Notes under the pieces: generated by a model | The model's input: the letters and a program-made list of their open reading frames with translations, nothing else | Database searches by the model: none | What the model was told of the DNA's origin: nothing | Position numbers and translations under genes: made by a program | In this document: positions 33,529-64,000 of the stretch, piece by piece | Layout: each line of letters begins with the position of its first letter | How positions within the stretch are numbered: the first letter of the stretch is position 1 | Assembly: GCA_026004615.1 (NCBI GenBank) | Contig: BPJM01000002.1 | Coordinates: forward strand, 62,001-126,000 | Reading direction: 5' to 3' | DNA length: 64,000 nt | DNA from: Planctomycetota bacterium | GTDB taxonomy: Bacteria; Planctomycetota; J058; J103

Positions 33529-33607
33529 CGGGGCGTAGCTCAGCTTGGTTTAGAGCGCTGCGTTCGGGACGCAGAGGTCGGTGGTTCAAATCCACTCGCC
33601 CCGACCA
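33529..33607 (+). tRNA. tRNA-Pro (anticodon CGG)
   Basis: Full cloverleaf of 79 bases including an encoded CCA. The acceptor stem CGGGGCG pairs with CGCCCCG followed by ACCA. The D stem is GCTC/GAGC. The anticodon arm CTGCG-TTCGGGA-CGCAG gives anticodon CGG, which reads CCG. The T loop is TTCAAAT. It has its own promoter. The accessory region starts just downstream, which fits tRNA genes as integration targets, although no second copy of its 3' end was seen in the window. Confidence 0.95.
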
Positions 33608-41910: not shown

Positions 41911-41922
41911 GGAGACAGACAC

Positions 41923-48131: not shown

Positions 48132-48352
48132 GAACGACCTCCTATCGACCAGCCCAGGTTGTAAGCCAACCGCTGAACGACCCGCAGCAGCAGGAACACT
48201 GCGCGCACTCGCCAGGGCAGACCGTCCTCGCGATACAGCGCGGCGTGCCAGCGCAAATCCCGCGCAATCTCGGCGGGCGTCGCTGGCGGTGGTCGCAATC
48301 CCTTCCAGCGGCTCGCCGTTGGTCGTCGTCTCCAGAGATCCGCAAGTGACAT
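48128..48352 (-). CDS. Small basic protein leading operon B
   Basis: This is a 74-aa protein, basic and Arg/Trp-rich at the start (MSLADLWRRRPTASRWKG). A helical middle (TPAEIARDLRWHAALYRE) leads to a hydrophobic/basic helix (RAVFLLLRVVQRLAYNLGW). I do not recognise it. ATG 48352 follows a purine-rich AAGGGAAGAG. Its stop is joined to the radical SAM start (GTGA). It has no cysteine, no leader-core layout and no Gly-Gly site, so it is not an obvious peptide precursor. A perfect TTGACA lies at 48413-48408 upstream, without a good -10. Confidence 0.6.
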   Translation of the reverse strand: MSLADLWRRRPTASRWKGLRPPPATPAEIARDLRWHAALYREDGLPWRVRAVFLLLRVVQRLAYNLGWSIGGRS

Positions 48353-49144
48353 GGCTCTTCCCTTCGCCGCTTTCCGTCGTCCCACAACCGTGTGGCGACT
48401 CCGGCGGTGTCAAACGCCATGCCATCTCGCAGCCGACCGCCAAAATACAGGCAAGTCTTGGAGCGGAAGAAACTTACGCCCGACCCAATCCAACGAGACG
48501 ACATTCGCCGAGGAATCGTGATCGCTCGAGCGGAATCTCCTTTCCGCACGCCCTGTGTGACCGTCGGCCCGGATTTGTCTCTGGCTCTGGTTATGACCCA
48601 CCTGCGCTGACCCCTTGCGCCGGAGCGCCTTTGCTCTCCCAGCCAACGATCGAGGGGCGACTTAATGACAGGCTGGTTTTCGTGGTCTCCAGACGCGGAA
48701 CGCCCCCCGACGTTCGTCCTGGCGTTGCCGTTGCCAAGATCCAGGCAACCGTCGTGGCGAGGCGCTTCAGCGATGGGAAACACGCTTCCCTCGCCGGCCG
48801 GCCCCCCCCGAACCAAGACCAGCAGTTCATGCGCGTCCGCACGGTCGCGCCAGCGGCGCAAGGGCGGACGATAGGCCCTGCATCACATGCACATGTGACC
48901 GAAGCGAGCACGCCGGTGTCGCCGCCTGCTGTTCTGGCGGAGGCAGAACACACCAAGACCCACGACGTCATCGCCCGGTGCGTAAGGCGCGCCCGACGCC
49001 TTGGCGGAGGGAACCAGGCCGGGGGACGCTGCTTGGAGCCCGAACTCGCTCCTCCCGCGCCGGCAAGCCTGCGGCCGACGCGATCATTTTCATGTCAGAT
49101 TGCCAACGCCGACAGCGTCCTGGTACTGGAAGGAGGACGCGGCG
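48353..49144. other. Gene-poor stretch between operon B and a zinc-finger gene
   Basis: No gene is accepted here. A plus-strand frame around 48570-48800 reads LLSQPTIEGRLNDRLVF, faintly like an IS1380 transposase segment, but the match is too short to annotate. The operon B promoter should lie in the first ~100 bases. Confidence 0.4.
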
Positions 49145-49372
49145 ATGAGCAGGCCGATCTGTGACGAATGCGGGGAACCCATTGTGGTCCGGTTCGGTCC
49201 CTACAGCACGTTCTGGGGCTGCACTGCGTTTTCGAGGTCCCGCAACACGAAACCCCGCAAGGCGGGGTACGCCCATCGCGGCGAGGACGTGTACTGGGTT
49301 CCGGAACACGGCTTTTGTTCGCAATGCGGCGCGCAGGAGCGCCCTTACTGCGGCGCCTGTCGCTGCGGCTGA
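49145..49372 (+). CDS. Small protein with a topoisomerase-type C4 zinc finger
   Basis: This is a 75-aa protein. CDECGEPIVVRFGPYSTFWG followed by a cysteine resembles the C4 zinc finger of topoisomerase I (zf-C4_Topoisom, CxxCG..L..R.G.YG.F.GC). A second cluster, CSQCGAQERPYCGACRCG, ends the protein. AAGGAGGA lies about nine bases before ATG 49145. It stands alone between operon B and a transposase remnant, probably mobile-element cargo. Confidence 0.65.
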   Translation: MSRPICDECGEPIVVRFGPYSTFWGCTAFSRSRNTKPRKAGYAHRGEDVYWVPEHGFCSQCGAQERPYCGACRCG

Positions 49373-49509
49373 TCTGACAACGCGACGAGCCTGGAACTAA
49401 GCCCCAAAGAGAGCTTTACGAAGGAGAGGCGTCTTCCGCCGCCCCGAAGAAGCTCGCACCGCTTTCCAGCTCATTTCCGCCCGCAGGGTATTACGTGGCC
49501 TGCCCGGGC

Positions 49510-50153
49510 CGGGGCAGCCACCACCGCCATCGTTGCGACCACATCCTGGGACAACTCGTGAAGAAGCTCGAAGACAAGGAAGTTGCTGCCACGAGCAAGA
49601 AAGGTGCGGATCTTCGTGCGAACGCCGCCTTCAACCGCTACCTCAAGATCCACAAGGGCCGACTCGTGCTTGACCGCGCCAAGGTGAAGCGCGAGCAGCG
49701 ATACGACGGCAAGTGGGTGCTGCGAAGCAACCTATCGGGGCAGGGGGCGGCCGATCTGGCGGACACTACAAGGAGCAAAGCAGGATCGAAGCTGACTTCC
49801 GAGCTCTCAAGAGCTTCATCGAGCCCCGCCCTGTCTACCACCACACCCAGCCGCGTGTGCGCGCCCATGTCTTCGTGTGCGTCCTTGCGAAGCTGCTCGT
49901 GGTCGAACTCGAGCGCCGCCTCACGAAGACCGGCACGAAGAAGTTCACTGTGCGCCGCGCTCTCGAGATCCTGAAGCAACTACGCGCGACTCGGGTCACC
50001 GTCGGTCACGAAGAGCGTTGGCTGCGGACCGAACTCAACGACGACATGCGGTCGGTGCTCGCCGCCCTCGACGTCACCGAACGCAGCCTTCCCATTGCAC
50101 CCGGGGGCCGCCGCCTCGTAGTGCCAAACGCCCCAAGCTTCCAGCAATTTTAA
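49510..50153 (+). pseudogene. IS1634-family transposase, C-terminal part, frameshifted
   Basis: Two frames together read the end of an IS1634 transposase. The first, from about 49510, gives NRYLKIHKGRLVLDRAKVKR and YDGKWVLRSNL. The second, from about 49760, gives SRIEADFRALKSFIEPRPVY, HHTQPRVRAHVFVCVLAKL and ends at 50153. The break lies near 49740-49765. The 5' two thirds are missing, so it cannot make an active transposase. Confidence 0.75.
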
Positions 50154-51518
50154 TTTTTTTCACGAAAAGCGTTGCGGTGAAATTTCGTCGCAAAACCGTA
50201 AAGGGCGCGTCTGTCTTTCCTGAGGTCGATTCAGGTGGGCCGTGGTTCTCTGAGCGCCCGCATGGTAGCGGGCGTCGGCGCCCATATGGGAAGGAGAGAA
50301 GCAACAGGCGGAGGTTTCTGATTCGGCGGCCGGATCAGGAATCCCCCTGGGGGGCGAACGCGGCCAGCTACCTACCAGCCGCCGCGTAGCGTGCTGACGA
50401 TTCGCGCCTTTTCGAACGCGCGATGCCAGCCGGCACGCCACAACCCAACTTGCGCACTCGAAACCGGGCAAGCTATACTTAACACGGCCTCCTTCGCCCG
50501 GTGGAGCCCTTGCGAGATGGGCACAGCGACGGACGCTTGCAACACGTGCGAGGCCCTGCGACTCAAATGTGGCTCTCGCTCCGCGGCTCGCGGCACCTCG
50601 CACTTGCAAGCTGTCGCGCACAGCGACGAGTTTCGAAACGCCCCAGAACGCATCGCAACGCGCGAGCGCGCCAAGGCAAGGACGCCTCGGCCACGCTGGA
50701 CGCCGGCCCCAGGAGATCCGCTTGGACCTCCTTCCACCGTCTGCGGCGCGTCGTCACTGCGATGACAAGGAACGTGCCCCCTTCGATGCCGCAGCTAGAG
50801 AGTTGCAGGACCAGCGCTGTCTCTTTTTCTCGAAAGGTCGCGGCAACCTGCGGCCGGCCTTACCTTTCCCTCCGATCTCCGGCGCGCCGTCGAGGCTTGG
50901 CAACTGCCAGCGCACGCACCAAGGCACTCGCCTCGCCGCGCAACCTTCCGTGCACCCGAACTCGCCGAGCCCTGTTACGCCACGAGGTTGCGCGAAACGA
51001 TCGTCTGCTCACACCGCCGCATAGACTGCTCAACGGGCGCGTAGACGACCGCGCACCTCGCCACGCCGTCCTTGGTGGCCAAGCACGCGAAACACACACA
51101 AGGCACGCGCAGACAGAGTGCACTGCGAAAGGCCGGCCTGAAAATGCCGCGCTTCGCGACGCCGGGCCAAAGGCCCCACACCCTCGCGTCCCCGTCTCCC
51201 CGACGCTCCGACAACCAAGAGTTTCACACCCGGGACCGACGTTGGCCAACGGGCGCAAGACGACGCCATGCACCCCAACGACGCCACCCCCATAACGCAA
51301 TTGCCCGCGGACAACAGCGGCGCTGGCACCCGAAGCTCCCTCTCGTGGAGACACGACTTCGGTTACGCCGAGGTCGAGCCGCCACGACCATGTCGTCTCC
51401 GTCAACGTGTTGAGCCGAACAGATTACCGTTGATCGCTGAGCGCGGAACCGCGGCTCCAACTCGAAGCCGCGCCACGCGCCGGCTCTCCGACCCAGAAAC
51501 CTCACGACGCAGTTCGCC
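50154..51518. other. 1.4-kb gene-free stretch before operon C
   Basis: No gene is recognised on either strand. The stretch starts right after the transposase remnant with a T-rich end (about 50150-50165) and runs to the ATG of the kinase-helicase gene. Open frames lack ribosome binding sites and motifs. It may contain the operon C promoter, but no clear -35/-10 pair was seen. Confidence 0.45.
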
Positions 51519-54348
51519 ATGAAGCCGACACGCACATACATAACCTTGTCAAATACCGCGCAGAACGACACTTCGCGTCCAGCGCGCGACGTGGACACCG
51601 ACGGCTCCGGTCCACGGCATGCTGAGCAGCCGCTGCAAATCGCGAACGGCACTCGGCTGCTCGACGGCCGGTTCGAGGTTCTCGAAGAACTTGGCCGCGG
51701 GGGTATGGGCCAGGTCTTTCGGGTGAAGGATCACCAACTCGAGACCGAACGCGCCCTCAAGATCTCCACGTCCTTGGACAATCGGTCCGACGCGACGATC
51801 AAAGCTCTTCAGCAAGAGCTCGAACTTCTGCGCAACATCGATCGGCCCGACTACTTCCCGCGACTCCACGAGTGGTTCCGCATCGGGGACAGGCTGGCCA
51901 TCGTGATGAGCCTTGTTCCAGGCATACCGCTCTCACGCTTCGTCGACACGACGCCGCTTGAAAAGATCGACTGCAGTGTACTCGTGCGCCTGATCGACCA
52001 GATTGTCGATCGGCTCGAGTACCTCCACAGCTACCCCGGGGGCCAGATCGTCTTTCGCGACCTCAAACCATCCAATGTCATGGTGGAACCCGGAACACTG
52101 AAGGTACGGCTGATCGATTTCGGAATTTCCGGGCTATTCGACCCACTTGCCTCTGGCATGCCGATTCGGGGCACCGAGGGATATCTCGACCCCCATGTCT
52201 TGCGAACCCGTATCCACGGTCCTACAGCCGATCTCTATGCTCTCGGCCAACTCATTCGGTATCTGCTCTTTGCGAAGCACCCAACAACGAACGCACCAGG
52301 CGACACCAACATACCGTACGCGCAACAACGGCGGCTGTCGGAGCAATGGTGCTCGCTCGCGGAGGCACTCACCGCGGATGATCCCCAGCGTCGACCGTCG
52401 CTCGTGGCAGTACGGCGGCGCATCGAGGAGATTCACCAGGACACTCTGAGCGCAGACTCGGCCGATTCGCTGCCCGAGATAGAAACCTGCAAGGACTGTG
52501 GCTACGACCTTCTCCCGGCGCAGGTGTTTTGCGTCTCCTGCGGCGCGCGAACCGTTCCCGAACCCAATGTGCCAGAGCGCACGATCCAACGGCTTCAGAG
52601 ACGCCTCGACGGCGTGGCCTCCCCGCCGACGCCGCCTGCTGCGGAAACGATCCGCCAGCGCTTCCTGAAGCGATTCGCAGATTCCGCCGTCGGCAGATTG
52701 CACGCACATCGGACCTATCTGCGGATATTGGAGGCCTCGCTTGATGATGGTTTTGGCACCTTGCGATCGCTTGGGCGCGCAAGCGTGTTGCCCTATGATT
52801 ACCAGCAACGAGCCGCGCTTCGAGTGTTGCGGGAGTTTCAGGGACGGGCGCTCCTCGCAGATGAGGTCGGACTCGGCAAGACAATCGAAGCGGCGCTGAT
52901 CGCAAGCGAGTATGACGTCCGAGGACTCGCACGCTCCATGCTGGTGATCGCTCCCTCCGCCTTGGTCGATCAATGGAAACAAGAGCTGGCGCGCTTCGGC
53001 CTCGACTTCATCGTCTTGCGGAAAAGCACGGACTTGCAGCGCCTCGCTCGCCCGCCGCGACGCTACATCATATCCCACGGCCTTCTGCGCAAGAGCAACG
53101 CACCGCAGCTCGAACGCGCGTGGGATCTCATCATCGTCGACGAAGCACACAACTTTCGGCGTCTCACAAACGTTCGCAGCCGCCTCCTCGCACGAATGCA
53201 GTCGCGCTATCTTCTCTTTCTTTCGGCAACACCCGTCCAGACCAGCCTTGACGACCTATACAATCTCATGTCGCTGCTCCGTCCCGGATTTCTTGCTGCC
53301 GACAGATCGCGCTTTCAGCGCCTGTTCGTTTTTTTCCGGCGACCGCCTGCGCCTCAAAAACGCCGCGAAGCTCCGCAACCGTCTGCGCAGCGTGATGATT
53401 CGCAATCGCCGGCGCGAATGCCTGGTCCAGTTTCCAGAGCGCGTCGCGCACTCCTTCCACGTAACACTCGACGACGAGGCCAGGGAGGCCTACGGGGACC
53501 TGGTGCGCGAGTGCAAACGTCTCGGACGCAGCCAGGGAATCGTCAGAGCGACGTTTCTGCAACTCTTCTGCTCCTCCTACAGTGCCCTCGACGCGTCCCT
53601 GCAGAAGAGCTCCTCCGGCCACCAGCTCAACCGAGATACATTTGCGGCACTTGTTCGACGCGAGCACTTCAAACTACGCGCACTCCGCGAAAAGATTCTC
53701 CCCATGCTCGAAGGCCAGAAGACGCTCATCTTTTGCCAGTACCGGGAAACACAACGCGAGGTGTTCGAGTCGCTGCGTCGCGACGGCCACCACGTCGCCA
53801 CGATCTGCGGCGTGTCGGGAAGGGAAAAGACCCAGCGCATTCTGCGCTTCAAGCAAGATCCCGACGCGCACCTTCTGATCTGCAACAGCACGGCGTCTGA
53901 GGGCCTCAATCTGCAGTTTTGCAGCGCACTCGTGAACTACGATCTGCCGTGGAACCCCATGCGCCTCGAGCAGCGCATCGGCCGCATCCAACGTTTGGGT
54001 GCAGTCGCGCGCCGGATTCATATCTTCAATCTTTTCGCTAAGGGCACCATCGAGGACTTTCTGTTCGAGGTGCTCGACAAACGCCTTCACTTGTTCTCCG
54101 AATCGATCGGCGTTATCGAGCAAGTGTTGGGGCGGCTCGAAGAGGGCGAAAGCTTCGAGGCTCTCGTCTTCAATGCGCTGTTCGAGGACGATTTCGAATC
54201 GTACGCGCGAAAGGTGGGCCAACGTCTGGCGAAATTGCGGGAGCAGAACCGAAAGGAAGAGGAGCAGGCCGCATCGATTCTCGATGCTTTCGAACTCGAC
54301 GCGCTCTTCGATGACGTAGCGAGCGATTTGAGAGCACGCGGACTATGA
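51519..54348 (+). CDS. Ser/Thr kinase - zinc ribbon - SNF2-type helicase fusion, with a one-base frameshift (operon C)
   Basis: This is about 942 residues if the frame is joined. The kinase lies at ~50-310: GRGGMGQVF loop (57), catalytic FRDLKPSN (~180, FRD in place of HRD) and DFGIS (~200). A zinc ribbon follows (CKDCG...CVSCG, ~323-341). Then comes an SNF2/HepA-like motor: LADEVGLGKT (~446), VDEAHNFRR (~540), FLSATPVQ (~566), NSTASEGLNLQ and RIGRIQRLG. The frame breaks near 53327-53335 in a run of seven T; removing one T restores ...RLFVFSGDRLRLKN.... Either an assembly error or a real slip. Its stop overlaps the next start by four bases. Confidence 0.88.
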
Positions 54349-57300
54349 GGAGTTCTGAACCGCCTAGAACGCAGCCACGCCACGACAGGAGCATGCCACA
54401 GGCTCGCCTGCGGCAGTACGTCCTGGACAGCTTGGAACTGCTCGGATTTGCACTCGAGTTCGAGTCTCACGGGATTATCTCGGCCAAGACGCCGGACGCG
54501 CTCTACCGGCATTTTGACTGCAAGCCGCTCTACCGGTTGTGTTTCGACAAAGAGACCGCATTTCTGGATCATGACCTCGAACTCGTCGTTCCGGGCAGCC
54601 GGTTTCTGCAGCTACTCCGCGAGGCCTTGGCGCGTCACAATTGCATCGCGCATGTCGTCGCAACGCCCGAGAACACTGCGCTGATTCGCAAGGATCTGAA
54701 ACACGAGTTCGAAACACGCTGCACCTTCTTCAACGGCTCGCTGCACGCTGCACGCCTCATTCGCCGCTTCCGACGTCTGGCCCGCTACTCCGCCTTGGTC
54801 ACCCACTCGATCGCCGCGACGGAGCAACAGCTCGTTCCCGTGATGGTGGATCTGGATACCGGTGAGTTGGCCGACATGGCAGAACTCAAGGCCACGCGGC
54901 AATACGATCTCGAAGAGTACCAGCGCATCCACCAGGACGCCGCCCCCCTGCGCCGCGTAAGTCCGGAGGAACTCGCCCGGCATATCGACCAGGTGACGGC
55001 GCACGTATGGGGCAGATTGCGCAACGACCTACTTGCCGAGTGGACGCGCACGGCAAGCGCGATTGCGGATCAATTGGCCGAGAGCGAGGCTTTCTTCCGC
55101 CAGCAGCTCCAGGAGAGCGCGTATCCGAGGGAGGTCCAGGGAGCGCACCAGGCGCGCCTTCAGGCGCTGCAAGAACAACTCAAGACACACGTGGACCTCG
55201 AAATCGTGGGCGTTGTCGCCATTCATCGTGAGATTCCTGAAGTGGAGGCGCGCTTCTCGAACGACAAGGGCGACGAGGCGACACTTCACCTGGCGCTGGA
55301 CTCGTCGCTCGCCGACTTGAGCCTTCGCTACTGCGCCACCTGCGACGAAGTTCGTGAAGCGTACTTCGTTTCGTACCGCGACAGCGTCTTGCTCTGCCAG
55401 GAGCACGGTGCCCTCTGTCGCTCCTGCGGCGACGCCACACGCCGCGACGATCTCGGCTGCGAAGGCGCCACCCACCCCTCGACGGAACCTGGGGATTGCT
55501 CAGCATGTCGGATCGCCTGTGCGCTCTGCGACCGCGCACTTTGCCAGCTGTGCAAACACACGACCACATGCTGCGAGGTCAATTCCTGTGACAGCTGCAC
55601 CCTTTCGTGTTCGTTTGCGGGCTGCCAACAATCGCGACTGTGTCGAGAACACGCCCTGCAGTGCAGAGAGTGCGGTCACCGGTTTTGCCGCGACCACGCG
55701 GCGATTGCCGACTGCTGCGGCGCCGCAGTCTGTGCGGCGTGCGCGGCGCGTTGCCCGGTGGACGACCAGCTGTTGTGCACCGAGCACCGGGTCGCTTGCC
55801 TAGGCTGTGAGACCGCCTATTGCCGTGAAGCACACCCCGACCTCAACTGTACGCTGTGTAACGGGCTGGTCTGCGCGTCCTGCATCGACCTGGCTGCACG
55901 TTGTCAGCTCGATCAACACCGACTCTGCCCCGAACACGCCGCCAGGTGCGCGGAATGCGATGCCGCGCTGTGCGTGACCCACCGCGAACTGGCATGCCGC
56001 GTCTGCAGCTCGTACCGATGCGTCGAGCACATAACGCATTGTCCGTCCTGCGGCAGTCCGTGTTGCGACGAGCACCGCGGCACTTCGAATCTTGGCGCCG
56101 TGGAGATCTGCCCCGCTTGCTCTGTGCAGTGCGCGGCCTGCGAGAACACCGTCGCTCGAGAGCAGGTGACCAAGACCACTTGTTGTGGCGTGACGCTTTG
56201 CTCGGCATGCGCACTTGCATGCACCGTCTGCGCCGAGACGAGTTCCGCCGGCGGCAGCCCAGGCTGTCTCGAGGAGACCACCGCTGCCGCGCCGATCCTC
56301 TGCCCTGATCACGTCATTCGCTGCACGGCATGCCAGGCGACGCTATGCAATCGCCATGAAGACCTCACATGCTGGGCATGCGGCTTGCCGTTCTGCCCCG
56401 ATCACCTCCGCCCCTGTGCGTCCTGTGGAACCGTCGTTTGTGCCGAACACCGCAGTCGCTCGGCTGCTGGCGACACCGAGATTTGCGCGGCCTGCACCAC
56501 GGTATGTCAGGGCTGTGGCATGCCGGTCTATCAGGGCGAGGTGAACCAGACGGTGTGCTGCGCAGCGTGTCTGTGTTCTCGCTGCGCAGCGACGTGCGCG
56601 GTCTGCGGGTGGCCCATCTGCAAGACGCGCCATGCCCGTCCCTGCAAGGAATGCCACGCCGTTGTCTGTGCCGACCGCCACGCGAACCACGCGTGCGTGA
56701 CCTGCGGGCAGGTACTCTGTACGACGCACTTTGGTGCATGCCCTTTCTGTGGCCGCGGGACATGCTCGGAACACCGGATCATGGTTGGCCGCGACAGCCT
56801 GCCAGGCTGCTTCGAGTGCGTAATCGCGTGCGGCTCCTGCGGGCGGCAGACGTGGAAGTCCGAAACCGCCCCCACCTCCTGCTGCGGAGTGCGCCTCTGC
56901 CCCTTTTGTGTTCGCAAGTGCGCCCAATGCGGCACAGCCCTGTGCCCCCAGCACGCGCTCGAATCCGACTTTTCCGCACGACCTGTCTGCAGCAGTTGCG
57001 TTCAACGCTGCCTGCACTGCCGAAACCGCCTGCTGCCCCGCGAATGCGAGCGCTGCTCTTCATGCAGCGGACCTCTCGGTCCCTGCTGTCCCGAGCAACG
57101 GTGTTCCAGCTGTCGCCAGCGGCTCTGTGACGCTTGCAGCCTGCGCTGCGCACTCTGCGCTTCGATGGGGCGTGCCGAAGAATACTGCGCACAGTGCGCG
57201 TACGGGCCCGGCGACCCCCGACAGGTGCGACTCGGCGTGTGCGCTCACCCCGATTGCGGCACCTACTTTTGCAGTCGACACGGCAAGCGATTTCGACTCA

Positions 57301-57680
57301 GGAACAGCACGGAAGAACAGTGGCTGTGCGACCTTCACATCGCGCGTGACGCATACGACGACACGCTTCATCCAGCGCACCTCGTGTTTCCGTGTAGGTG
57401 TTGCGGCCTCACAGCCCGCCATGCGACCACGGACAGTCCACAGTGCCGTAGCTGCGTCGCTGTTGAGCCGCTGGCGGGTGATCCCGAACTCCAGGCCCTG
57501 TACCGCACGTTGATCCGACCTCGTCTCTCCTGGCTTGCGCGTATGGGGCAGGTGCGGACAAGCAGCAAGAGCGAGAAACGCCGCCTCGTGGCGTTTCATA
57601 TACTCCCCGCGTGGTCGGGCCAATCCCAGGTGGTCGTCGTGGACAGGATCCGTCGGGAGGTGGTGAAGTGGAAGAGTTGA
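54345..57680 (+). CDS. Giant cysteine-rich, tandem zinc-finger-like protein (operon C)
   Basis: This is an 1111-aa protein. Residues of about 15-325 are mixed alpha/beta with a coiled-coil-like stretch (RLQALQEQLKTHVDLE). From ~329 to ~1036 it holds about 125 cysteines (hand count) in CxxC, CCG and CxxCGxxxCxxH units, for example CRECGHRFCRDHA and CASCGTVVCAEH, resembling serial treble-clef/B-box/RING-like zinc sites. Such an array is very unusual in bacteria and suggests a large metal-bound scaffold for protein or nucleic acid. The last ~75 residues are basic. No known family is recognised. It overlaps the helicase gene by four bases (ATGA); ATG 54393 is an alternative start. Confidence 0.8.
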   Translation: MRSSEPPRTQPRHDRSMPQARLRQYVLDSLELLGFALEFESHGIISAKTPDALYRHFDCKPLYRLCFDKETAFLDHDLELVVPGSRFLQLLREALARHNCIAHVVATPENTALIRKDLKHEFETRCTFFNGSLHAARLIRRFRRLARYSALVTHSIAATEQQLVPVMVDLDTGELADMAELKATRQYDLEEYQRIHQDAAPLRRVSPEELARHIDQVTAHVWGRLRNDLLAEWTRTASAIADQLAESEAFFRQQLQESAYPREVQGAHQARLQALQEQLKTHVDLEIVGVVAIHREIPEVEARFSNDKGDEATLHLALDSSLADLSLRYCATCDEVREAYFVSYRDSVLLCQEHGALCRSCGDATRRDDLGCEGATHPSTEPGDCSACRIACALCDRALCQLCKHTTTCCEVNSCDSCTLSCSFAGCQQSRLCREHALQCRECGHRFCRDHAAIADCCGAAVCAACAARCPVDDQLLCTEHRVACLGCETAYCREAHPDLNCTLCNGLVCASCIDLAARCQLDQHRLCPEHAARCAECDAALCVTHRELACRVCSSYRCVEHITHCPSCGSPCCDEHRGTSNLGAVEICPACSVQCAACENTVAREQVTKTTCCGVTLCSACALACTVCAETSSAGGSPGCLEETTAAAPILCPDHVIRCTACQATLCNRHEDLTCWACGLPFCPDHLRPCASCGTVVCAEHRSRSAAGDTEICAACTTVCQGCGMPVYQGEVNQTVCCAACLCSRCAATCAVCGWPICKTRHARPCKECHAVVCADRHANHACVTCGQVLCTTHFGACPFCGRGTCSEHRIMVGRDSLPGCFECVIACGSCGRQTWKSETAPTSCCGVRLCPFCVRKCAQCGTALCPQHALESDFSARPVCSSCVQRCLHCRNRLLPRECERCSSCSGPLGPCCPEQRCSSCRQRLCDACSLRCALCASMGRAEEYCAQCAYGPGDPRQVRLGVCAHPDCGTYFCSRHGKRFRLRNSTEEQWLCDLHIARDAYDDTLHPAHLVFPCRCCGLTARHATTDSPQCRSCVAVEPLAGDPELQALYRTLIRPRLSWLARMGQVRTSSKSEKRRLVAFHILPAWSGQSQVVVVDRIRREVVKWKS

Positions 57681-59326
57681 CGCCGCCCGCCTTGGACCTG
57701 AACCACTCAAGTCGATACCGGCAGCCGCGACCTCTCTCACTCCAGCACCCCGCAGGCATTGCGAGCTACACGGCGCGCGACAGCCGACACGGCGACACCG
57801 TCGTTCTCCTGCATTTCTCGGCGCTGCACTCGCTCGACAAGGAACGGCTCGATTCGGAATACCGCCAGTACTGCCAGTTGTCCGAACACGTGGCTCTCCC
57901 GGCGATCCGTGACCGTCTTCGGGTCGGCAGCGACGAAATCGTCGTGCTGACGGCGTCGGACGGCTTCGACCCCATCGACGAGCGACTTCCCCCCGCACAG
58001 CGCAGCGCCCTTCTCGGTTTCCTTGCAGAGATCGAGTTGCGCGGGACGCTCGACCGACTTCTCGTGACGCCGTCCCAGATCTTCGTGAACGCTGCCACGC
58101 GGCGCTTCATCGCCTACGGCCTGGTTCTCGGCGACCACCTGATTCCGGAAGGCGCCGCCGGTCCAGGCGCGTTCGCAGCACTGTTCGGCGCACCGGCCAG
58201 GAGTGCTCGTTCCTTTCGAGAGCTTGCAGCGTTGCTGCGGCAGCCCGTCGGCACCGAGGAGCAACAACGCAGAACGCTCCTCTACATGGCGAGACGGGCC
58301 ACGGCCCAGAGCAACTGGGACCAGGCGCGAGAGGCCCTGGGCGCTGCACGCTCGCTCGGCCCGGCATCGCCTGCTCTTGTGGCCGAAGAACTGCGCTTCG
58401 GCGTCCGCGCCGAGGATCAGGCCGTGTTGCAGCGGGCGCTCGAGGAGCTGACCAGCCTGGCCAAAAGCAGTCCGATCGACCCTGAACTTCAACGGCTTGC
58501 CGCTGCCGCCAAGGACCGGCTCGGGCGTAGCGACGAGGCGCTGCAAGATCTGACGACTCTGATCAACATCCGGGCGTCCGGGTGGGAGAAAGCGCTGTTG
58601 CTTCGGGCGGCGATCCTCGAAGATCTGGGGCGAATCGACGAAGCCGTCGCGGATCTCCGACTGGCGTATCGGGAGGTTCCGGACGAAGACACGCTGCGCG
58701 ATCTGCTGCGTCTGTCGCAACGTGTTCACGCGCCCGAAGTGGCAGTCGAGACGTGGCTCAGCTCTCAGATCCCGCTTTCGAACCCTGCCGTCGCGGCGGC
58801 GATACTGCGAGGCTTGCGGTTACTGGGCCAGCCACACCGCGCGGCGGCGCTCGCGCGTGACACGGCCGCTCGGCTGCCAGTCGTCCCGGACAGACTGCTT
58901 GCCACCTTCAAGCACGTGTTTCTCTCCGCGTTTGATACAAACCGCGAATGGCTGGTTTTTCTCGGCGAACTCGTACAACAGGGCAAGGCTGCTCCGGAGG
59001 TGTTGGGCCAGGCGTATTTCGACGCGGGCTGGTACGACAGAGTGATTGCTCTGGCAGCCCGGGAAAGCGACAATCCGCATCTGCAGGACCTTCGTCGCAT
59101 GGCGCAGGTGGTGGTGGGACCGATCGATGCGTCCCTGCGCCGCGAGTTGGAACAGCGGTGGCGCGACATGGCGCCGATTCCGCCCGGATTTCTCGCACGG
59201 GTGTATGCTGCTCTGGGCTGCCGGGCCGACCTGGCTCGACTGCGCAAAGAGGCCGTCGAGCGCGGCTGCTGGACTGACGAAGAGGAAGCGAGGTTCACGA
59301 CGCTATGCAGCGATGGGAACTGCTGA
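57668..59326 (+). CDS. Degenerate-kinase-like plus TPR-like repeat protein (operon C)
   Basis: This is a 552-aa protein. The first ~165 residues follow the outline of a protein kinase without its catalytic residues: a loop-like YTARDSRHGDTVVLLHF, a helix region, then GTLDRLLVTPSQIFVNAATR where HRD-KxxN would stand. It reads as a pseudokinase; this is inference. The rest is all-helical repeats (RRATAQSNWDQAREALGAAR, KDRLGRSDEALQDLTTL), like TPRs. GTG 57668 has GGGAGG about eight bases upstream and overlaps the previous gene by 13 bp. Likely an adaptor between the kinase, scaffold and ATPase. Confidence 0.72.
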   Translation: MEELTPPALDLNHSSRYRQPRPLSLQHPAGIASYTARDSRHGDTVVLLHFSALHSLDKERLDSEYRQYCQLSEHVALPAIRDRLRVGSDEIVVLTASDGFDPIDERLPPAQRSALLGFLAEIELRGTLDRLLVTPSQIFVNAATRRFIAYGLVLGDHLIPEGAAGPGAFAALFGAPARSARSFRELAALLRQPVGTEEQQRRTLLYMARRATAQSNWDQAREALGAARSLGPASPALVAEELRFGVRAEDQAVLQRALEELTSLAKSSPIDPELQRLAAAAKDRLGRSDEALQDLTTLINIRASGWEKALLLRAAILEDLGRIDEAVADLRLAYREVPDEDTLRDLLRLSQRVHAPEVAVETWLSSQIPLSNPAVAAAILRGLRLLGQPHRAAALARDTAARLPVVPDRLLATFKHVFLSAFDTNREWLVFLGELVQQGKAAPEVLGQAYFDAGWYDRVIALAARESDNPHLQDLRRMAQVVVGPIDASLRRELEQRWRDMAPIPPGFLARVYAALGCRADLARLRKEAVERGCWTDEEEARFTTLCSDGNC

Positions 59327-61389
59327 TCGGCGAGCGCGTGCGCATGACCTATGGGCGGTCGGCACCCGGCTCACCCTATTGCCTGGACGGAAAAGACCTT
59401 GTGACCCACATGTTCATCTGCGGGGCGACCGGCTCCGGCAAGACCGTGTTGGCCAAGGCAGTGGTCGAGGAGCTAGCATGCCGGGGGGTGTCCTCGATCG
59501 TCATCGACCTCAAGGGCGATCTCACCTCTCTCGCCCTCAAGGGAACGCACCTTTTTGACAAAAGGCTTGAAGCGTCCTACCGGGCCCTTCTCGGCGATTC
59601 GTTCGAGGCAGAGCGTGAGAGGTTCCGCATCGCGTGGGCACGTGACCCGGACGCGCAGACGCTCGCGGAACGCTTCAGCAATCGCGTTCGCATCAAGGTG
59701 TTCTCTCCTCTCTCGCAGGCGCTCGAGCCTCTCTCGTTTGGCTTCTTCCCGACCGCGCCGGAGAACTTCGCGGCTCTCTCTCCGGAGGAAAAGGAAGACT
59801 TCCTCTTGCCCCTGCGGGGTTTCGCGGTGGCTTTCGTGGCGAAACTCTACAAGGGGAGAAAGAGCAAGAAGGCGGAACTCGGCGTTCCGTTCATCGAAGA
59901 GATCATCAAGTATTGTTGGGAAAACGAGATCCCTACCGAGGGCGAGAAGGGGATCTGCAATTTGGTCAGCATGATCACGGACCCGCCGTTTGATCACGTC
60001 GGTGCCCAAAGCCTTCCTGCCTTTATCTCGGAGGGTGATCGCCGGGAGCTTGCCAGTCGCGTCAACACGTTGCTCATGGGGGCGGCGCGACTGAGTTTGA
60101 AAGGGCGGCGGTTCTGCGTTTCGGAAGCCCTGGGCCTCGAAGACGGCAAACCGACGATCTGCATTTTGAACCTGGTCAAACTGGGCGACTTCATGGACCG
60201 GGCGATCGTCGTGGCCCACGTCGCCTACGAGTTGAATCGGTGGATGCGCACACAATCCACAACCGAAACGCCCCGCGCTTTGTTCTACCTCGACGAGCTC
60301 GGCGGCGAGGGTGGCGGCCAGTCCTACTTCCCCTCTTACCCCCGAAATCCCCCATCAAAACCGCCCCTCAACATCCTGGTCAGGCAGGGGCGTTCGTTTG
60401 GCGTCTGCTGTCTTTTCGCCACGCAGAACGTGGCCGACTTGGATGTGCGCGCGCTCACCAATCTGCGCACGTGGGCTCTCGGAAGACTCACCAGCCCAGC
60501 CGATCTGCGGCGACTCACGGAAACGCACGGCACCCGTCTGCTGGCCAACGGCGCCACGATTGCAGAAGCGGTAGCGCAACTCGACAACCACCACTTTCTG
60601 GTGCTCGAGGCCAGCGGCGATATGCATCTGATCCACGAGCGACACCTCCACACGGTTCACACCATCGTCCCGCCGGAGCGGTTTCCACACCTCAGAGAGT
60701 TGCTGCAGCTTTCGCAAGAGCTCGAAAATACGGACGGTGGCCTGCCACCGGTCGTGGAGCGGTCCGAGACCGCACCTCCGGCTGCCACCGCGAGGGCCGC
60801 ACCACACGTGATCGACAGGGTTACCTCGCAACCCATTTCTCCTCGTCCTGCCGCGCCGCCAGCAGCCTCCGAGGCGGCGCGCCCCGGCACACAGCGGCCG
60901 GTAGAGACGCCTGCTGAGCACTCGGGGCCAGCGGCAGCCCGCGCGGAGAGCCCGGTCGAAAGACCGGGCGGAGCAAGACAGGCAGAAGCCAGGTTGGAAT
61001 CCTCACGACAGGAACCCGCCACGAGAACGTTCGTCGCCGAGGAGACGCGCCTGTTTGTGGAGGAGGATGACGAGCGAGTCGAGCACCGACCGACGCACCC
61101 AGCCCTCCGGGTTCTGGTCAACGATCGCCCGATACCGCGCAGCATGCGCGCAGGGGAGCGCTGGATATTCGGGCGCGCGCACGGTTGTGACGTTTTGCTG
61201 GAGGATCCTCACGTCTCGCGGAGGCAGTTCGAGGTTGCCCACCTTGGCGACCGCGTGCGTATCACAGTGCTGCCGTCCAAGAACCGAACGAATATCGAAG
61301 GGGTCAGGCAGGGTGACGGAACATTCCTGATCGCGCCGGGCGTGGTCATACGAGTCGCCAAGACCCGGGTGACCTTACAAGTGGAATAG
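59305..61389 (+). CDS. HerA-type DNA-translocating ATPase with C-terminal FHA domain (operon C)
   Basis: This is a 694-aa HerA/DUF87-family ATPase: Walker A CGATGSGKTVLAKAV (~40), IDLKGDLTSLAL, a Walker B strand ending LFYLDELGGEGG (~328) and the sensor-like LFATQNVADLD. A Pro/Ala-rich linker (~480-570) leads to an acidic Thr segment (TRTFVAEETRLFVEEDDE, ~572) and an FHA domain (FGRAHGCDVLLEDPHVSRRQ, ~621). FHA domains bind phosphothreonine, so the operon's kinase is its natural partner. HerA hexamers pump DNA and usually work with nucleases. The ATG lies 22 bases inside the preceding gene. Confidence 0.88.
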   Translation: MQRWELLIGERVRMTYGRSAPGSPYCLDGKDLVTHMFICGATGSGKTVLAKAVVEELACRGVSSIVIDLKGDLTSLALKGTHLFDKRLEASYRALLGDSFEAERERFRIAWARDPDAQTLAERFSNRVRIKVFSPLSQALEPLSFGFFPTAPENFAALSPEEKEDFLLPLRGFAVAFVAKLYKGRKSKKAELGVPFIEEIIKYCWENEIPTEGEKGICNLVSMITDPPFDHVGAQSLPAFISEGDRRELASRVNTLLMGAARLSLKGRRFCVSEALGLEDGKPTICILNLVKLGDFMDRAIVVAHVAYELNRWMRTQSTTETPRALFYLDELGGEGGGQSYFPSYPRNPPSKPPLNILVRQGRSFGVCCLFATQNVADLDVRALTNLRTWALGRLTSPADLRRLTETHGTRLLANGATIAEAVAQLDNHHFLVLEASGDMHLIHERHLHTVHTIVPPERFPHLRELLQLSQELENTDGGLPPVVERSETAPPAATARAAPHVIDRVTSQPISPRPAAPPAASEAARPGTQRPVETPAEHSGPAAARAESPVERPGGARQAEARLESSRQEPATRTFVAEETRLFVEEDDERVEHRPTHPALRVLVNDRPIPRSMRAGERWIFGRAHGCDVLLEDPHVSRRQFEVAHLGDRVRITVLPSKNRTNIEGVRQGDGTFLIAPGVVIRVAKTRVTLQVE

Positions 61390-61480
61390 ACGCCACCACT
61401 GCCGAGAGTGCGCGATCTTCCCCATGTGGCGCCCGGAGACACAACTCGTCGGAAGCGACAGGCCGGCGAGGCGTGACGCA

Positions 61481-61735
61481 GCCGGCCGCCACCTTGATCT
61501 GTTCGAAGAAGCGCCGAGGCGTGGGGCGCGCGAGACGCCAGATGATCTGCAGCGGCCGCTCCTGCTGGTGTCGGACGTAGTAGACCGGGCCGAGAAAGAC
61601 GTAGGGGTTGGTCTCGCCCCGCTGATCCTTCCTGGTGTCACGCACGGATAGCATGACCGACGCACCATCGCGGACGTGGCGGAGGTAACGCTGTCCAGCA
61701 GCGGAGCGCTCCCGCGTCTGCCCTTGGGATGGGTA
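61481..61735 (-). pseudogene. C-terminal fragment of a DUF3427 helicase
   Basis: The minus-strand frame reads SAAGQRYLRHVRDGASVMLS, then TNPYVFLGPVYYVRHQQERP and IIWRLARPTPRRFFEQ, the end of the DUF3427 domain found at the C-terminus of restriction-like DEAD/DEAH helicases. The match begins about ten bases from the left inverted repeat of the IS3 element, so the insertion probably cut the gene. The missing helicase part is not found on the other side of the element. It is convergent with operon C. Confidence 0.75.
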
Positions 61736-61745
61736 GGGGCATGGC

Positions 61746-61757
61746 TTCCTTGGACAC
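61746..61757 (+). repeat. Left terminal inverted repeat of the IS3 element
   Basis: TTCCTTGGACAC, complement of the sequence at 63182-63193. A further hairpin (GACACCC 61753-61759 with GGGTGTC 61781-61787) lies between this end and the OrfA start. Confidence 0.8.
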
Positions 61758-61778
61758 CCAACTGGGGAGGACCCGAGA

Positions 61779-62135
61779 ATGGGTGTCATGGCTACCAACG
61801 GCAAGAGCACGCGACCGAGCAACGCACCGGAGCGTGGCCGCTGGACGTCCCAGCGGAAGATGGAGGTCGTGCTGCGGCTACTCCGCGGCGAGGACCTGGA
61901 TGCGGTCTCGCGCGAGCTGAAGCTCAAGACGTCGAGGCTGGCGAAGTGGCGCGATGACTTTCTGGCGAGCGGGCAGACGGGGCTCAAGAGCCGGACCGGC
62001 GATCACCGCGATGAGGAGAACGCGCGCCTGAAGTCGAAGGTCGGTGAGCTCACCATGGAGATCGAGCTCCTCCACGAGAAGATCGAGCGGCTGGAGGAAG
62101 GTCTCCGCCCTCGGAAGCGGAGGCCGAAGTGGTAG
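61779..62135 (+). CDS. IS3-family transposase OrfA
   Basis: This is a 118-aa DNA-binding subunit. It has an HTH (VVLRLLRGEDLDAVSREL, then TSRLAKWRDDFL) and a C-terminal leucine-zipper-like helix (KVGELTMEIELLHEKIERLE), as usual for IS3 OrfA. ATG 61788 is an alternative start. It overlaps the OrfB frame by seven bases. No A6G-type slippery site for programmed frameshifting was seen at the overlap. Confidence 0.88.
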   Translation: MGVMATNGKSTRPSNAPERGRWTSQRKMEVVLRLLRGEDLDAVSRELKLKTSRLAKWRDDFLASGQTGLKSRTGDHRDEENARLKSKVGELTMEIELLHEKIERLEEGLRPRKRRPKW

Positions 62136-63037
62136 CCCGGGCCTGGTCGGCCTCCGCGAATCGTCGCTATGGCCTGCAGCGAGTCTGCCGCGTGTGGCGG
62201 ATCGCCAGGTCGCGCGTCTACGAGGCCGGTCGCCGCAGGACTGCGATCGCCAACGGTACACTTCCCCGGCCGAGGAAGCGCGGGCCGGTCGGAGCGTGCA
62301 CGGACGAAGTTCTCGCCGAGCGCATCAAGCGGATCATCGCGGACTCGCCCTGGGTCAGCGAAGGTCACCGGAAGGTATGGGCGCGACTGCGGTACGAGGG
62401 GGTGCGCACGGCTCGTCGTCGCGTCCTCAAGGTGATGCGGGAGCATGACCTGCTGGCGCCGACCCGCATGGGACGGGCACGGGGACCGAAGGCACACGAC
62501 CGCAGCATCACGCCCGATCGCCCCGACGTCATGTGGGGCACGGACATGACCAGCGCCCTCACCAAGCAGGGCAGCGCCTCGATCTTCTTCGTCATCGATC
62601 ACTGCACTGCACAGTGCCTCGGGATCCACGCTGCAAGGGTCGGAACCCGGTTCGAGGCACTCGAGCCGTTGCGGCAAGCGGTGCGGGAGCGCTTCGGGAG
62701 GTTCGTATCCGAGGTCGCAACCAACTCCGGCCTGGCGCTCCGCCACGACCACGGAAGCCAGTTCGTCTCCCACGCCAACCAGGACGAGCTTCGGCTGCTC
62801 GGCATCAAGTCGAGCCCGACCTTCGTCCGGGGGCCCCAGGGCAACGCTGCGCCGAGCGCTTCTCCGCACGCTCAAGGAGAAGTGTCTGTGGCTTCACAGG
62901 TTCGCGACGATCGACGAGCTCCAGGAGGAGCTGCCCGCGTTAAGAGCCGGTACAACCACGGATGGCTCATCGAGAGGCATGGCTTCATGAGCCCGCGCGC
63001 GCGCTTGCAGGCGCACATGACGGAGGCGGCGGCATGA
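62129..63037 (+). pseudogene. IS3-family transposase OrfB (DDE integrase), damaged
   Basis: The 302-codon frame has the HTH_21 region (VSEGHRKVWARLRYEGV) and the first two catalytic aspartates (VMWGTDMTSA and RHDHGSQF). The third motif, GN-CAERF with the catalytic glutamate, is in another frame at about 62845-62865. The expected sequence TLKEKCLWLHRFATIDELQ appears in yet another frame before the original frame returns at YNHGWLIERHGF. Two or three small indels therefore garble residues of about 235-270, and the element is likely unable to move by itself. Confidence 0.8.
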
Positions 63038-63181
63038 GCGGAGGTCCGGTGGTGGGGTCGTGGGCAGGTAGCAGCGCAGGTGGCCGGAGACCCTGGAGAT
63101 GGTCGGAGGCTGCCTGTACCGCGTCAGCTGTCCACGAGCCCTCCAGCCGGTGAGGAGGGGCGGCTGACTACGTGCAACCTT

Positions 63182-63193
63182 GTGTCCAAGGAA
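63182..63193 (-). repeat. Right terminal inverted repeat of the IS3 element
   Basis: GTGTCCAAGGAA, exact inverted complement of 61746-61757, about 145 bp after the end of OrfB. Confidence 0.8.
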
Positions 63194-63288
63194 CCGGGTG
63201 CGCTACACGTCGCACGGGGCGCACAACGAACCCAGAATGTGGTGGAAGAGCGAGCGGCCCTGCCCCATACGTCGTGCAGAGCGTAGTG

Positions 63289-63757
63289 GTGAACAGAACG
63301 AGCCGACGGAGACAGGCCGATCTTCCGCCTCTCGGCAACCCCGACCTGGTATCGGTTGCGATCCGAGTGCCAGAGGGGGTCCTCTGCCTGCTGTCGGCTC
63401 TGGTGGTACACGGGATCACGACCGAGATCCCCCACGAGGTCCATGTCACGCTGAAGCGCGGCGTCAGAGCGCCACGACTGGACCACCCACCCCTGCGCGT
63501 CTACTGGTTCACGGGCAAGGCCTTCACGGCGGGTATCGAGGTCCACGAAATGGACGGCGTCGACGTGCGCGTCTACGGCGCCGCGAAGACAGTGGTCGAC
63601 TGCTTCAGGTACCGCAACAAACTCGGGCTGGACGTAGCTCTCGAGGCACTGAGGCTCTACCTGCGCCACAAGGGTGGTCGGCCCGACGAGGTTCTGCGCT
63701 TCGCCCGCGCGCCGGGTCGAGAAAGCGATACGCCCCTATCTCGAGGCTCTGGTGTGA
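63289..63757 (+). pseudogene. AbiEi-type antitoxin, truncated and frameshifted
   Basis: The frame reads GNPDLVSVAIRVPEGVLCLL, SALVVHGITTEIP, RLDHPPLRVYWFTGKAF and GAAKTVVDCFRYRNKLGLDV, the core of type IV toxin-antitoxin antitoxins (AbiEi_4). The N-terminal wHTH is missing: the IS3 right end lies only ~95 bp upstream. Near 63712 the frame slips by one base; the correct ending (VEKAIRPYLEALV) is read in another frame and stops at 63757, overlapping the toxin start. Confidence 0.8.
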
Positions 63758-64000
63758 GGCGCCGAAGACGCAAGAAGGTCGCCGCCTCCACCCACCAGCG
63801 CCTACTGAACGCGGCGCATACCTCGGGCCGGCCGTTCCACGAGCTCCTGAACTACTTTGCCATGGAGCGCTTTCTCTTTCGTCTGTCCCGATCGCCGCAT
63901 GTCGAACGGTTCGTTCTGAAGGGCGCGCTCATGCTTGCGGCGTGGCGGGTCTCGCTGATGCGCCCGACCAAGGACATCGATCTCCTGGGACACGTGGCGA
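63754..64000 (+). CDS. AbiEii/AbiGii-type nucleotidyltransferase toxin, 5' part (runs off right edge)
   Basis: This is an 82-residue start of an AbiEii toxin: HQRLLNAAHTSGRPFHELL, ERFLFRLSRSPHVERFVLKG, then RPTKDIDLLGHV, the family's KGA...DxDLL nucleotidyltransferase core. GTG 63754 overlaps the antitoxin stop (GTGA), the normal coupling in AbiE. Toxins of this family block growth by modifying a cellular target, probably tRNA. The rest lies outside the window, so its integrity cannot be judged. Confidence 0.85.
   Translation, partial: MRRRRRKKVAASTHQRLLNAAHTSGRPFHELLNYFAMERFLFRLSRSPHVERFVLKGALMLAAWRVSLMRPTKDIDLLGHVA

What the first reader, a model, noticed from the sequence alone, without database searches (positions are those of the whole stretch)
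51519..61389. Candidate undescribed system: kinase-helicase, Cys-rich giant, pseudokinase-TPR and HerA-FHA in one coupled operon
Seen: four long genes in one direction with overlaps of 4, 13 and 22 bp and no other gene between them. Known: Hanks-type kinases phosphorylate Ser/Thr; FHA domains read phosphothreonine; HerA ATPases move DNA and often pair with nucleases; SNF2-type motors remodel nucleic-acid complexes. Inferred: a phosphorylation-switched DNA-processing complex, with the Cys-rich protein as scaffold, probably antiphage or anti-plasmid. I know of no named system with this gene set. A nuclease is not obvious, which is itself a puzzle.
Basis: partly seen in the sequence, partly recalled or inferred. 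Interest (0 to 1): 0.93.

Follow-up and report, generated by a model that had tools for sequence, protein, structure and literature searches.

The report
Phospho-gated two-motor DNA-capture operon
A low-GC island in an unnamed bacterium's genome carries four overlapping genes: a protein kinase joined to a DNA motor (its reading frame is broken in this assembly), a giant cysteine-rich partner, a repeat protein, and a second DNA motor with a tail predicted to bind phosphorylated proteins; together they would form a phosphorylation-controlled machine, likely against invading DNA, in a gene combination that our searches did not find anywhere else.

Summary
Four same-strand genes with overlaps of 4, 13 and 22 bp are real. 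They lie in a sharp low-GC island (about 37-65 kb; 0.59-0.67 GC against 0.69-0.78) that also holds a Mokosh-like locus, IS3 and AbiE-like genes. Two corrections: gene 1 (kinase, zinc ribbon, SNF2) is not one open frame here, it shifts by +1 at seven T (53329-53335); and the "pseudokinase" half of gene 3 has no significant support. New identifications: gene 2 is a giant form (130 Cys) of a subunit encoded directly after SNF2 ATPases (profile without the window row: E=1.3e-19), bridged weakly to Bacillus YqhG; gene 4's HerA falls in a clade that also holds the HerAs of BREX-like operons and two-gene units, and only here was FHA found (0 of 79 other loci). Kinase-SNF2 plus Cys-bearing partner recurs in four other loci, one with an FHA gene next door; the complete set was not found again. 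No PADLOC, NCBIfam or literature match names it. Best reading: a kinase/FHA-coupled SNF2-HerA DNA-capture module of anti-invader type, without a visible nuclease. Defence is contextual and untested; repair or RNA-polymerase recycling is the main rival.

The parts
51519..53336 (+). Gene 1, first part: Hanks-type kinase (aa 52-296), zinc ribbon (CKDC..CVSC), SNF2 first lobe with Walker A DEVGLGKT and DEAH
   Evidence: Pkinase 9.1e-33, SNF2-rel_dom 2.2e-24; G-loop, ALK, FRDLK, DFG present. The ORF runs on to 53900 but coding bias is lost after the T run.
53329..53335 (+). Run of seven T where the gene 1 reading frame changes by +1
   Evidence: Sequence; ORF table; GC by codon position
53337..54348 (+). 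Gene 1, second part: SNF2 second lobe (Helicase_C, QRIGRIQR) in the +1 frame (ORF 53248-54348)
   Evidence: Helicase_C 4.8e-19; aligns with the second half of kinase-SNF2 fusions
54345..55325 (+). Gene 2 N-terminal domain: SNF2-partner family, loosely YqhG-like
   Evidence: E=1.3e-19 against a profile of eight partners with the window row left out; A4 family in 20 of 198 genomes, the window's own included; one member matches Pfam YqhG 1.9e-6
55326..57455 (+). Gene 2 Cys/His array: 126 Cys in 710 aa, repeated CxxC..CxxH/C units
   Evidence: similar array fused to archaeal HerA L043 (1.9e-12; 0 of 30 shuffles matched)
57456..57680 (+). Gene 2 C-terminal tail
   Evidence: Translation; resembles by eye the tails of P0169 and the L118 partner
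57668..59326 (+). Gene 3: TPR-like helical repeat protein with an N-terminal region of unproven fold; orphan
   Evidence: TPR_2 2.4e-4, below cut-off; helical in a low-confidence model; outside the window's own genome only weak matches to residues 128-352 in 10 of the 119 genomes searched
59305..61389 (+). Gene 4: HerA-type ATPase (Walker A GATGSGKT, LFYLDE, ATQN) plus linker plus FHA
   Evidence: DUF87 8.3e-9, HerA_C 3.7e-9, FHA 1.3e-8; motifs; clade
61156..61380 (+). FHA domain: FGR, SRRQ, NRTN
   Evidence: not among the precomputed Pfam domains of the other 44 listed homologues (three of them have no domains listed) and not found in ORFs of 79 HerA loci
37709..43317 (+). Context: Mokosh-like genes (SF1 helicase MkoA 3e-82; 387 aa unknown; PLD protein)
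61779..63037 (+). Context: IS3-type transposase genes
   Evidence: HTH_Tnp_1, HTH_21 and rve matches
63172..64000 (+). Context: AbiE-like genes, continuing past the window end; AbiEii match covers only the first half of the profile; the AbiEi-like part is by eye
   Evidence: AbiEii 1.4e-18, profile 1-118 of 238
37001..64000 (.). Context: low-GC island, about 37 kb to 65 kb (ends about 1 kb past the window)

Best explanation
The four genes code for a protein kinase joined to an SNF2 DNA motor (frame broken in this assembly), its giant Cys-rich partner, a TPR-like protein and a HerA motor with an FHA domain, and they would act as one phosphorylation-gated DNA-capture machine, likely against invading DNA. 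Shown: the domains, the overlaps, the kept catalytic motifs, the SNF2-partner pairing elsewhere, the HerA clade and the island. Inferred: (1) the SNF2 ATPase and gene 2 form a complex that tracks along DNA, with the zinc array binding nucleic acid or proteins; (2) on meeting a signal such as a stalled polymerase, an odd DNA end or foreign transcription, the kinase phosphorylates threonines on the complex or on the TPR protein; (3) the HerA FHA domain docks on the phosphothreonine, so the HerA ring is loaded only there; (4) the ring pumps or strips the captured DNA. No nuclease domain was recognised, so cutting, if any, would need a host or trans nuclease; otherwise translocation and eviction alone would block the invader.
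For: Kinase with G-loop, ALK, FRDLK and DFG; FHA with its Arg, Ser and Asn positions kept. Kinase-SNF2 fusions are a family (window SNF2 groups with P0047 and six kinase-fused rows, SH-aLRT 86). Kinase-SNF2 followed by a Cys-bearing partner in L112 and L212 (39 and 88 Cys, both cut by contig ends) and L118 and L119 (25 Cys each); in L112 a zinc-ribbon-FHA gene (FHA 8.9e-10) lies directly upstream: kinase, SNF2, Cys-rich partner and FHA together a second time. HerA: 36-row clade (SH-aLRT 97) with all 9 HerAs of BREX-like operons and all 12 of the two-gene units. HerA followed by a PLD-SNF2 protein in L002 (PADLOC C3a139 'HKD+Snf2' 1.2e-98), by a helicase-C match in L054, and beside a divergent SNF2 gene in L068. 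HerA fused to a similar Cys array in L043. Low-GC island with Mokosh-like and AbiE-like genes.
Against: Gene 1 is frame-broken here. The four-gene set was not found in any other genome searched. No nuclease recognised. The SNF2-partner pair occurs beside what look like ordinary genes in L118, L119, L212. FHA has Gln where the usual motif has His (SRRQ). Gene 3 has no recognised homologue. HerA sits alone on a long branch (2.46), so its exact place is unsure. No HerA relative found in 50,697 phage records or by the viral-contig scan. No A4 partner near any of the other HerA loci. Terminator-like sites within the genes exceed chance. No phage data exist.
Confidence: 0.4

Rival explanations
1. 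Genome-maintenance role: the SNF2-partner pair works like Bacillus HepA/YqhH with YqhG, recycling stalled RNA polymerase or helping repair, and kinase, FHA and HerA add damage signalling and DNA processing; not a defence system.
For: A member of the partner family (L209) matches Pfam YqhG 1.9e-6; B. subtilis YqhH is also called HepA and is described as interacting with RNA polymerase (PMC7385302, passages); yqhH deletion lowers UV survival in B. thuringiensis (PMC10054049, abstract); pair kept with the same following genes in L118 and L119, by eye.
Against: HerA groups with the BREX-operon clade, not with the four HerAs sampled from other families of the phylum (L159, L160, L163, L164); island context; patchy presence (partner in 20 of 198 genomes); only one of the partner proteins scanned matches YqhG; that yqhG and yqhH are neighbours in Bacillus is recalled, not tested.
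Confidence: 0.3
2. Two separate modules that happen to be neighbours: the widespread SNF2-partner pair (genes 1-2) and an unrelated TPR-HerA-FHA unit (genes 3-4).
For: Each module was found without the other: no A4 partner in the other HerA loci and no HerA match in the fetched SNF2-partner loci, many of which are short contigs.
Against: 13-bp overlap joins genes 2 and 3; kinase in one module and FHA in the other; FHA beside kinase-SNF2 in L112; HerA-SNF2 neighbours in L002, L054, L068 and HerA-Cys array fusion in L043.
Confidence: 0.15
3. A decaying locus: gene 1 is a true frameshift mutant and the operon no longer works.
For: Frame change at T7; the AbiEii-like gene after the IS3 element also matches only half its profile and loses clear coding bias.
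Against: Genes 2-4 are open over 1111, 552 and 694 codons with normal codon bias; a homopolymer in a 17-contig, 77.7% complete assembly is a usual place for assembly errors (general knowledge); two nearby breaks fit error as well as decay.
Confidence: 0.15

Closest known systems
HerA/FtsK capture systems and DndFGH (PMC10853773, passages read)
   Same: HerA/FtsK motor thought to hold and pump invader DNA beside other DNA-binding and helicase-like modules
   Different: Those feature endonuclease domains and HTH or Orc/Cdc6 parts; the main text has no 'fha' and no 'protein kinase' (0 occurrences each)
BREX-Related Capture (BRC) systems (PMC12839542, passages read)
   Same: HerA motor joined to a multi-gene anti-invader module
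   Different: BRC core is PglZ, DUF6079, STAND, DUF4007, HerA with GNAT/TGT in a subset; none of PglZ, DUF6079 or TGT matched in this operon
BREX-like HerA operons found here (L005, L006, L009, L010, L014, L031; partial L008, L013, L042)
   Same: HerAs of the same larger clade
   Different: BrxC/DUF6079, HsdS-like in 4 of 6, PglZ, N6-methyltransferase, HerA (L006 annotated; the others by similarity to it); no kinase-SNF2 fusion or FHA seen there
MADS (mad6, mad8; PADLOC and NCBIfam models; paper not found in the library)
   Same: Kinase domain matches mad6 7.7e-42 and HerA matches mad8 7.9e-13; NCBIfam calls MAD6 a protein kinase; that MADS is a kinase-plus-ATPase system is otherwise recalled
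   Different: No methyltransferase or specificity protein in the operon; the mad6 match covers the kinase domain only
Mokosh (PADLOC MkoA/B)
   Same: MkoA model holds both a kinase part (matches gene 1 residues 46-315) and a helicase part
   Different: Its helicase part matches the neighbouring SF1 gene, not SNF2; a Mokosh-like locus is a separate neighbour at 37709-43317
DISARM DrmD / DpdE / BrxHI SNF2 helicases
   Same: SNF2 motor of the same broad family
   Different: Scores of the two halves are far below NCBIfam cut-offs (DpdE 102 and 107 against 500; DrmD 96 and 113 against 610 bits); no partner genes of those systems in the operon
Bacillus HepA/YqhH and YqhG
   Same: SNF2 ATPase and a YqhG-like partner
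   Different: No kinase, zinc array, FHA or HerA there (recalled); link rests on one bridge protein

Membership tests
HerA/FtsK capture system | HerA/FtsK ATPase with intact Walker motifs | tested here: met
HerA/FtsK capture system | Active nuclease domain as restriction component | tested here: not met
   No nuclease family in Pfam or NCBIfam scans of the five ORFs; PADLOC models with nuclease names match only over the helicase part. An unknown fold in gene 2 or 3 is not excluded
HerA/FtsK capture system | Mobile or patchy neighbourhood with other defence genes | tested here: met
BREX / BRC | PglZ and BrxC/DUF6079 | tested here: not met
   No match in the operon
MADS | mad2 methyltransferase and mad5 specificity genes with mad6 and mad8 | tested here: not met
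   Operon proteins match only mad6 (kinase domain) and mad8 among the mad models shown
DISARM / Dpd | DrmD or DpdE at curated score with their partner genes | tested here: not met
   Half-protein scores far below cut-offs; no partners in the operon
SNF2 plus partner pair (A4 family) | SNF2 gene followed directly by a gene with the A4 domain | tested here: met
   8 of 15 SNF2-chosen loci and 9 of 11 partner-chosen loci show the same pair
YqhG (PF11079) | Direct match to PF11079 | tested here: not met
   No match for the window domain up to E 0.5; only the L209 partner matches
Hanks-type kinase, active | Lys, catalytic Asp and DFG Asp kept | tested here: met
   ALK, FRDLK, DFG; activity itself not testable
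FHA phosphothreonine binder | Arg, Ser and Asn of the binding loops | tested here: met
   FGR, SRRQ, NRTN; the usual His is Gln; which residues matter is recalled
Pseudokinase (gene 3) | Detectable kinase-fold homology | tested here: inconclusive
   E=0.63, in register with the N-lobe; low-confidence model
Anti-phage system | Protection in challenge | not testable with these tools
   no bench data

The most novel reading that the evidence does not exclude
A new kind of anti-invader machine in which two DNA motors are coupled by Ser/Thr phosphorylation: a kinase-SNF2 sensor with a giant zinc-array partner marks captured DNA complexes by phosphothreonine, and an FHA-tailed HerA ring is recruited by that mark and disables the DNA by translocation alone, without its own nuclease.
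Probability: 0.27. Interest if true: 0.86.

Novelty: new variant of a known kind. Interest (0 to 1): 0.62.

Why it matters
Protein phosphorylation and HerA pumping are each known in defence, but a kinase in the sensor and an FHA on the HerA ring would give a direct, testable loading switch for a HerA motor. It would also give a context to the SNF2-partner pair, whose partner was found in 20 of 198 genomes sampled and matched no Pfam family apart from one YqhG match among the members scanned.

Tried and rejected
Rejected: equality with MADS, Mokosh, BREX, BRC, DISARM or Dpd (see membership test). Rejected: gene 2 as a free-standing scaffold of unknown origin. Rejected: gene 2 N-domain as a split-off piece of the SNF2 protein itself (E 0.13, no real match). 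Led nowhere: single-protein HerA scan of genome contigs (50 stretches, none confirmed); A1 in viral contigs (18 stretches, none confirmed); phage records with gene 4 (no match); plasmids with gene 4 (one 24% match); plasmids with gene 1 first part (1170 records match, none over 80% of the query; two of the listed top hits looked at, separate kinase and helicase genes); PDB sequence search of genes 2 and 3 (best E 0.1 and 0.054); two structure predictions without alignment (mean pLDDT 52, mean pLDDT 39), so no fold search was run; tRNA-Pro at 33529-33607 as an island attachment site (no repeat of its 3' end in the 78 kb examined); promoter and terminator scan; hhalign of the partner profile with SNF2-Cys fusions P0168 and P0170 (33 and 38 columns, weak). 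The PHROGs library was not used. Literature: the listings showed no paper on this gene set; only open-licence papers are held, and the MADS paper was not among those listed.

Full report
Observation. The ORF table shows ORFs 51519-53900 and 53248-54348, 54345-57680, 57611-59326 and 59305-61389, all on the + strand. The overlap of genes 2 and 3 is 13 bp if gene 3 starts at GTG 57668. Codon-position GC supports each frame: gene 1 before the T run 0.67/0.45/0.70; the same frame after it 0.78/0.65/0.43 (not coding-like); the +1 frame after it 0.65/0.39/0.74; genes 2-4 have 0.74 at position 3. So gene 1 is broken in this assembly at TTTTTTT 53329-53335. I cannot tell error from mutation.

Domains. 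Gene 1: Pkinase 9.1e-33, weak zinc ribbon, SNF2 2.2e-24; second part Helicase_C 4.8e-19. Gene 2: no Pfam, PADLOC or NCBIfam match at E 0.1 and only itself among 7994 scored candidates of 5.8 billion proteins. Gene 3: weak TPR. Gene 4: HerA/DUF87 plus FHA. PADLOC: kinase part to mad6 7.7e-42; SNF2 parts to DrmD, BrxHI and DpdE; HerA to mad8 7.9e-13. NCBIfam scores are far below the curated cut-offs. In the PDB the HerA profile is nearest by sequence to the HerA-like helicase YjgR (6.6e-14) among 7 matches.

Gene 1 family. The protein search gave 2465 hits, 120 listed. The ten listed with both kinase and SNF2 domains were aligned with the two window pieces and P0047. P0047 is the nearest (54% over 34%), listed without a kinase domain. 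In a tree of the first SNF2 lobe (42 rows, quick method) the window row pairs with P0047 (99) within a group of eight, seven of them kinase-fused (86).

Gene 2 family. In 119 genomes of the phylum searched with the kinase-SNF2 alignment, 98 have some match at 1e-40, many to kinases or SNF2 alone. I fetched longer flanks of 15 of the loci. In 8 of 15 the gene directly after SNF2 carries one shared N-terminal domain (L112, L113, L114, L115, L116, L118, L119, L123); in 2 the SNF2 protein itself has a Cys-bearing extension (L120, L121); in 5 none was seen (L117, L122, L124, L125, L126; several are contig ends or fragments). These eight also built the profile, so their own detection is no test; the profile without the window row finds the window domain at 1.3e-19 (search size set to 10,000), though the alignment had been made with the window row in it. 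Searched in 198 genomes, the domain is in 20, the window's own included. Of 11 further loci fetched, 9 have SNF2 directly upstream (L204, L205, L206, L207, L209, L210, L211, L212, L214; for L204 and L205 the partner position is) and 2 do not show it (L208, and L213 at a contig end). One member, L209, matches Pfam YqhG at 1.9e-6, above its cut-off; the window domain and the other members scanned do not. The zinc part varies: 1 to 9 Cys in short partners (L114, L211, L123, L209) to 88 Cys in 870 aa in L212 and 130 in the window.

Kinase-SNF2 plus partner. Besides the window: L112, L118, L119, L212. L112 and L212 end inside the partner gene, so what follows is unknown. In L112 a zinc-ribbon-FHA gene (FHA 8.9e-10) is directly upstream of the kinase-SNF2 gene. 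L118 and L119 share, by eye, two further secreted-looking genes after the pair, and L212 lies downstream of a gene with a BatA match just under its cut-off: settings that do not look like defence. L211 has an MmeI-type methyltransferase in front of its SNF2-partner pair.

HerA. 45 homologues in the protein search, the window's own included, and 79 loci in genome contigs, 80 of 96 confirmed stretches being kept by the tool. Only the window protein has FHA among the 45 by the precomputed Pfam column (three have no domains listed); an FHA query and a three-sequence FHA profile found none in ORFs of the 79 loci. The profile gave one marginal match elsewhere (L125, 0.0037), and so small a profile may miss divergent FHA. 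In a tree of 87 HerA rows (quick method) the window falls in a 36-row clade (97) holding all 9 HerAs of BREX-like operons and all 12 HerAs with a HARE-HTH-like partner, on a long branch of 2.46, so its exact place is unsure. Four HerAs sampled from other families of the phylum lie elsewhere (L159, L160, L163, L164). In the phylum set 32 of 119 genomes have a HerA-profile match at 1e-10, and 4 of 12 in the class, both counts with the window's genome. By eye, in the printed lists none lies within 20 kb of a strong SNF2 match except the window; the list was cut by the tool, so weak matches were not compared. Eight HerA loci with longer flanks (two of them short contigs) show no SNF2-partner; one has a kinase gene about 4 kb away (L159). 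Among the 79, HerA has an SNF2-type neighbour in L002 (right after it; PADLOC C3a139 'HKD+Snf2' 1.2e-98), L054 (right after it, weak) and L068 (divergent), and 5 kb away in L023; L049, L071 and L077 have a kinase gene beside a HerA of the other clade. None of these has the A4 partner.

A HerA-Cys link. Archaeal HerA proteins L043 and L044 carry a coiled-coil-like region and then a CxxC/CxxH array. The window array matches L043 at 1.9e-12 and L044 only at 0.033; none of 30 shuffled arrays matched either. This ties HerA and such arrays in one chain, in a HerA clade different from the window's.

Gene 3. Outside the window's own genome, 10 of 119 genomes gave matches at E<=0.001, all weak (1.2e-5 at best), between residues 128 and 352. 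A kinase-like N-lobe alignment is in register but not significant (E=0.63). I treat the fold of its first 190 residues as unknown.

Context. GC by kilobase drops at about 37 kb and rises at about 65 kb counted from the window start (0.592-0.672 inside, 0.686-0.779 in the 7 kb before and 13 kb after). Inside lie Mokosh-like genes, a sigma-54 activator, a glycosyltransferase, radical-SAM-like genes (by eye), IS3 and AbiE-like genes. No tRNA-end repeat was found.

Literature. HerA/FtsK capture systems (PMC10853773) and BRC systems (PMC12839542) are the nearest in principle; I read passages of both, not the whole texts. PMC7159879 passages name FHA and zinc ribbons in other conflict systems. YqhH as HepA: PMC7385302 passages; UV role: PMC10054049 abstract. 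The listings showed no paper on this gene set.

Verdict. A real, unusual composite operon in a defence-like island; a new combination of known parts. Anti-invader function is the most likely single reading, at 0.4. The whole set has been seen once and its first gene is broken there, which caps the confidence.

Noticed in passing
L005, L006, L009, L010, L014, L031 (partial L008, L013, L042): BREX-like operon with HerA: BrxC/DUF6079, HsdS-like (found in L005, L006, L010, L014; not in L009, L031), PglZ, N6-methyltransferase, HerA, in Paenibacillus, Halopseudomonas, Ectothiorhodospira and others, with a partial copy in Syntrophoarchaeum; gene make-up unlike BRC as described in the passages read.
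   Followed up: partly
L004, L011, L015, L016, L018, L019, L020, L021, L022, L023, L027, L080: Two-gene unit: a partner protein (HARE-HTH above cut-off only in L018) followed by HerA, in bacteria and a Lokiarchaeote; no PADLOC match for the five partners scanned.
   Followed up: partly
window 37709-43317: Mokosh-like locus without a kinase gene among the three scanned: SF1 helicase (MkoA 3e-82), 387-aa protein without match, PLD protein (DrmC 1.6e-26, MkoB 1.4e-12).
   Followed up: partly
L081:5172-6689 (from window 63172): AbiEi-like (by eye) and AbiEii-like parts in one frame; AbiEii matches only half its profile, probably a second broken frame.
   Followed up: partly
L043, L044, L038: Archaeal HerA proteins with Cys-bearing C-terminal parts (37, 35 and 14 Cys); L043 and L044 show CxxC/CxxH arrays.
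   Followed up: partly
L120:3640-12185: SNF2 protein with HEAT repeats and 66 Cys, followed by a kinase-FGE-sulfatase gene.
   Followed up: no
L216 (Streptomyces cellulosae plasmid NZ_CP109251.1): Separate kinase gene, DEAD/DEAH helicase, 1841-aa protein and a very large helicase in a row, beside a DUF262-HNH gene.
   Followed up: no
L211:1-5122: MmeI-type methyltransferase, SNF2 and partner gene in a row.
   Followed up: no
window 31711-31814: TPP riboswitch on the - strand.
   Followed up: no
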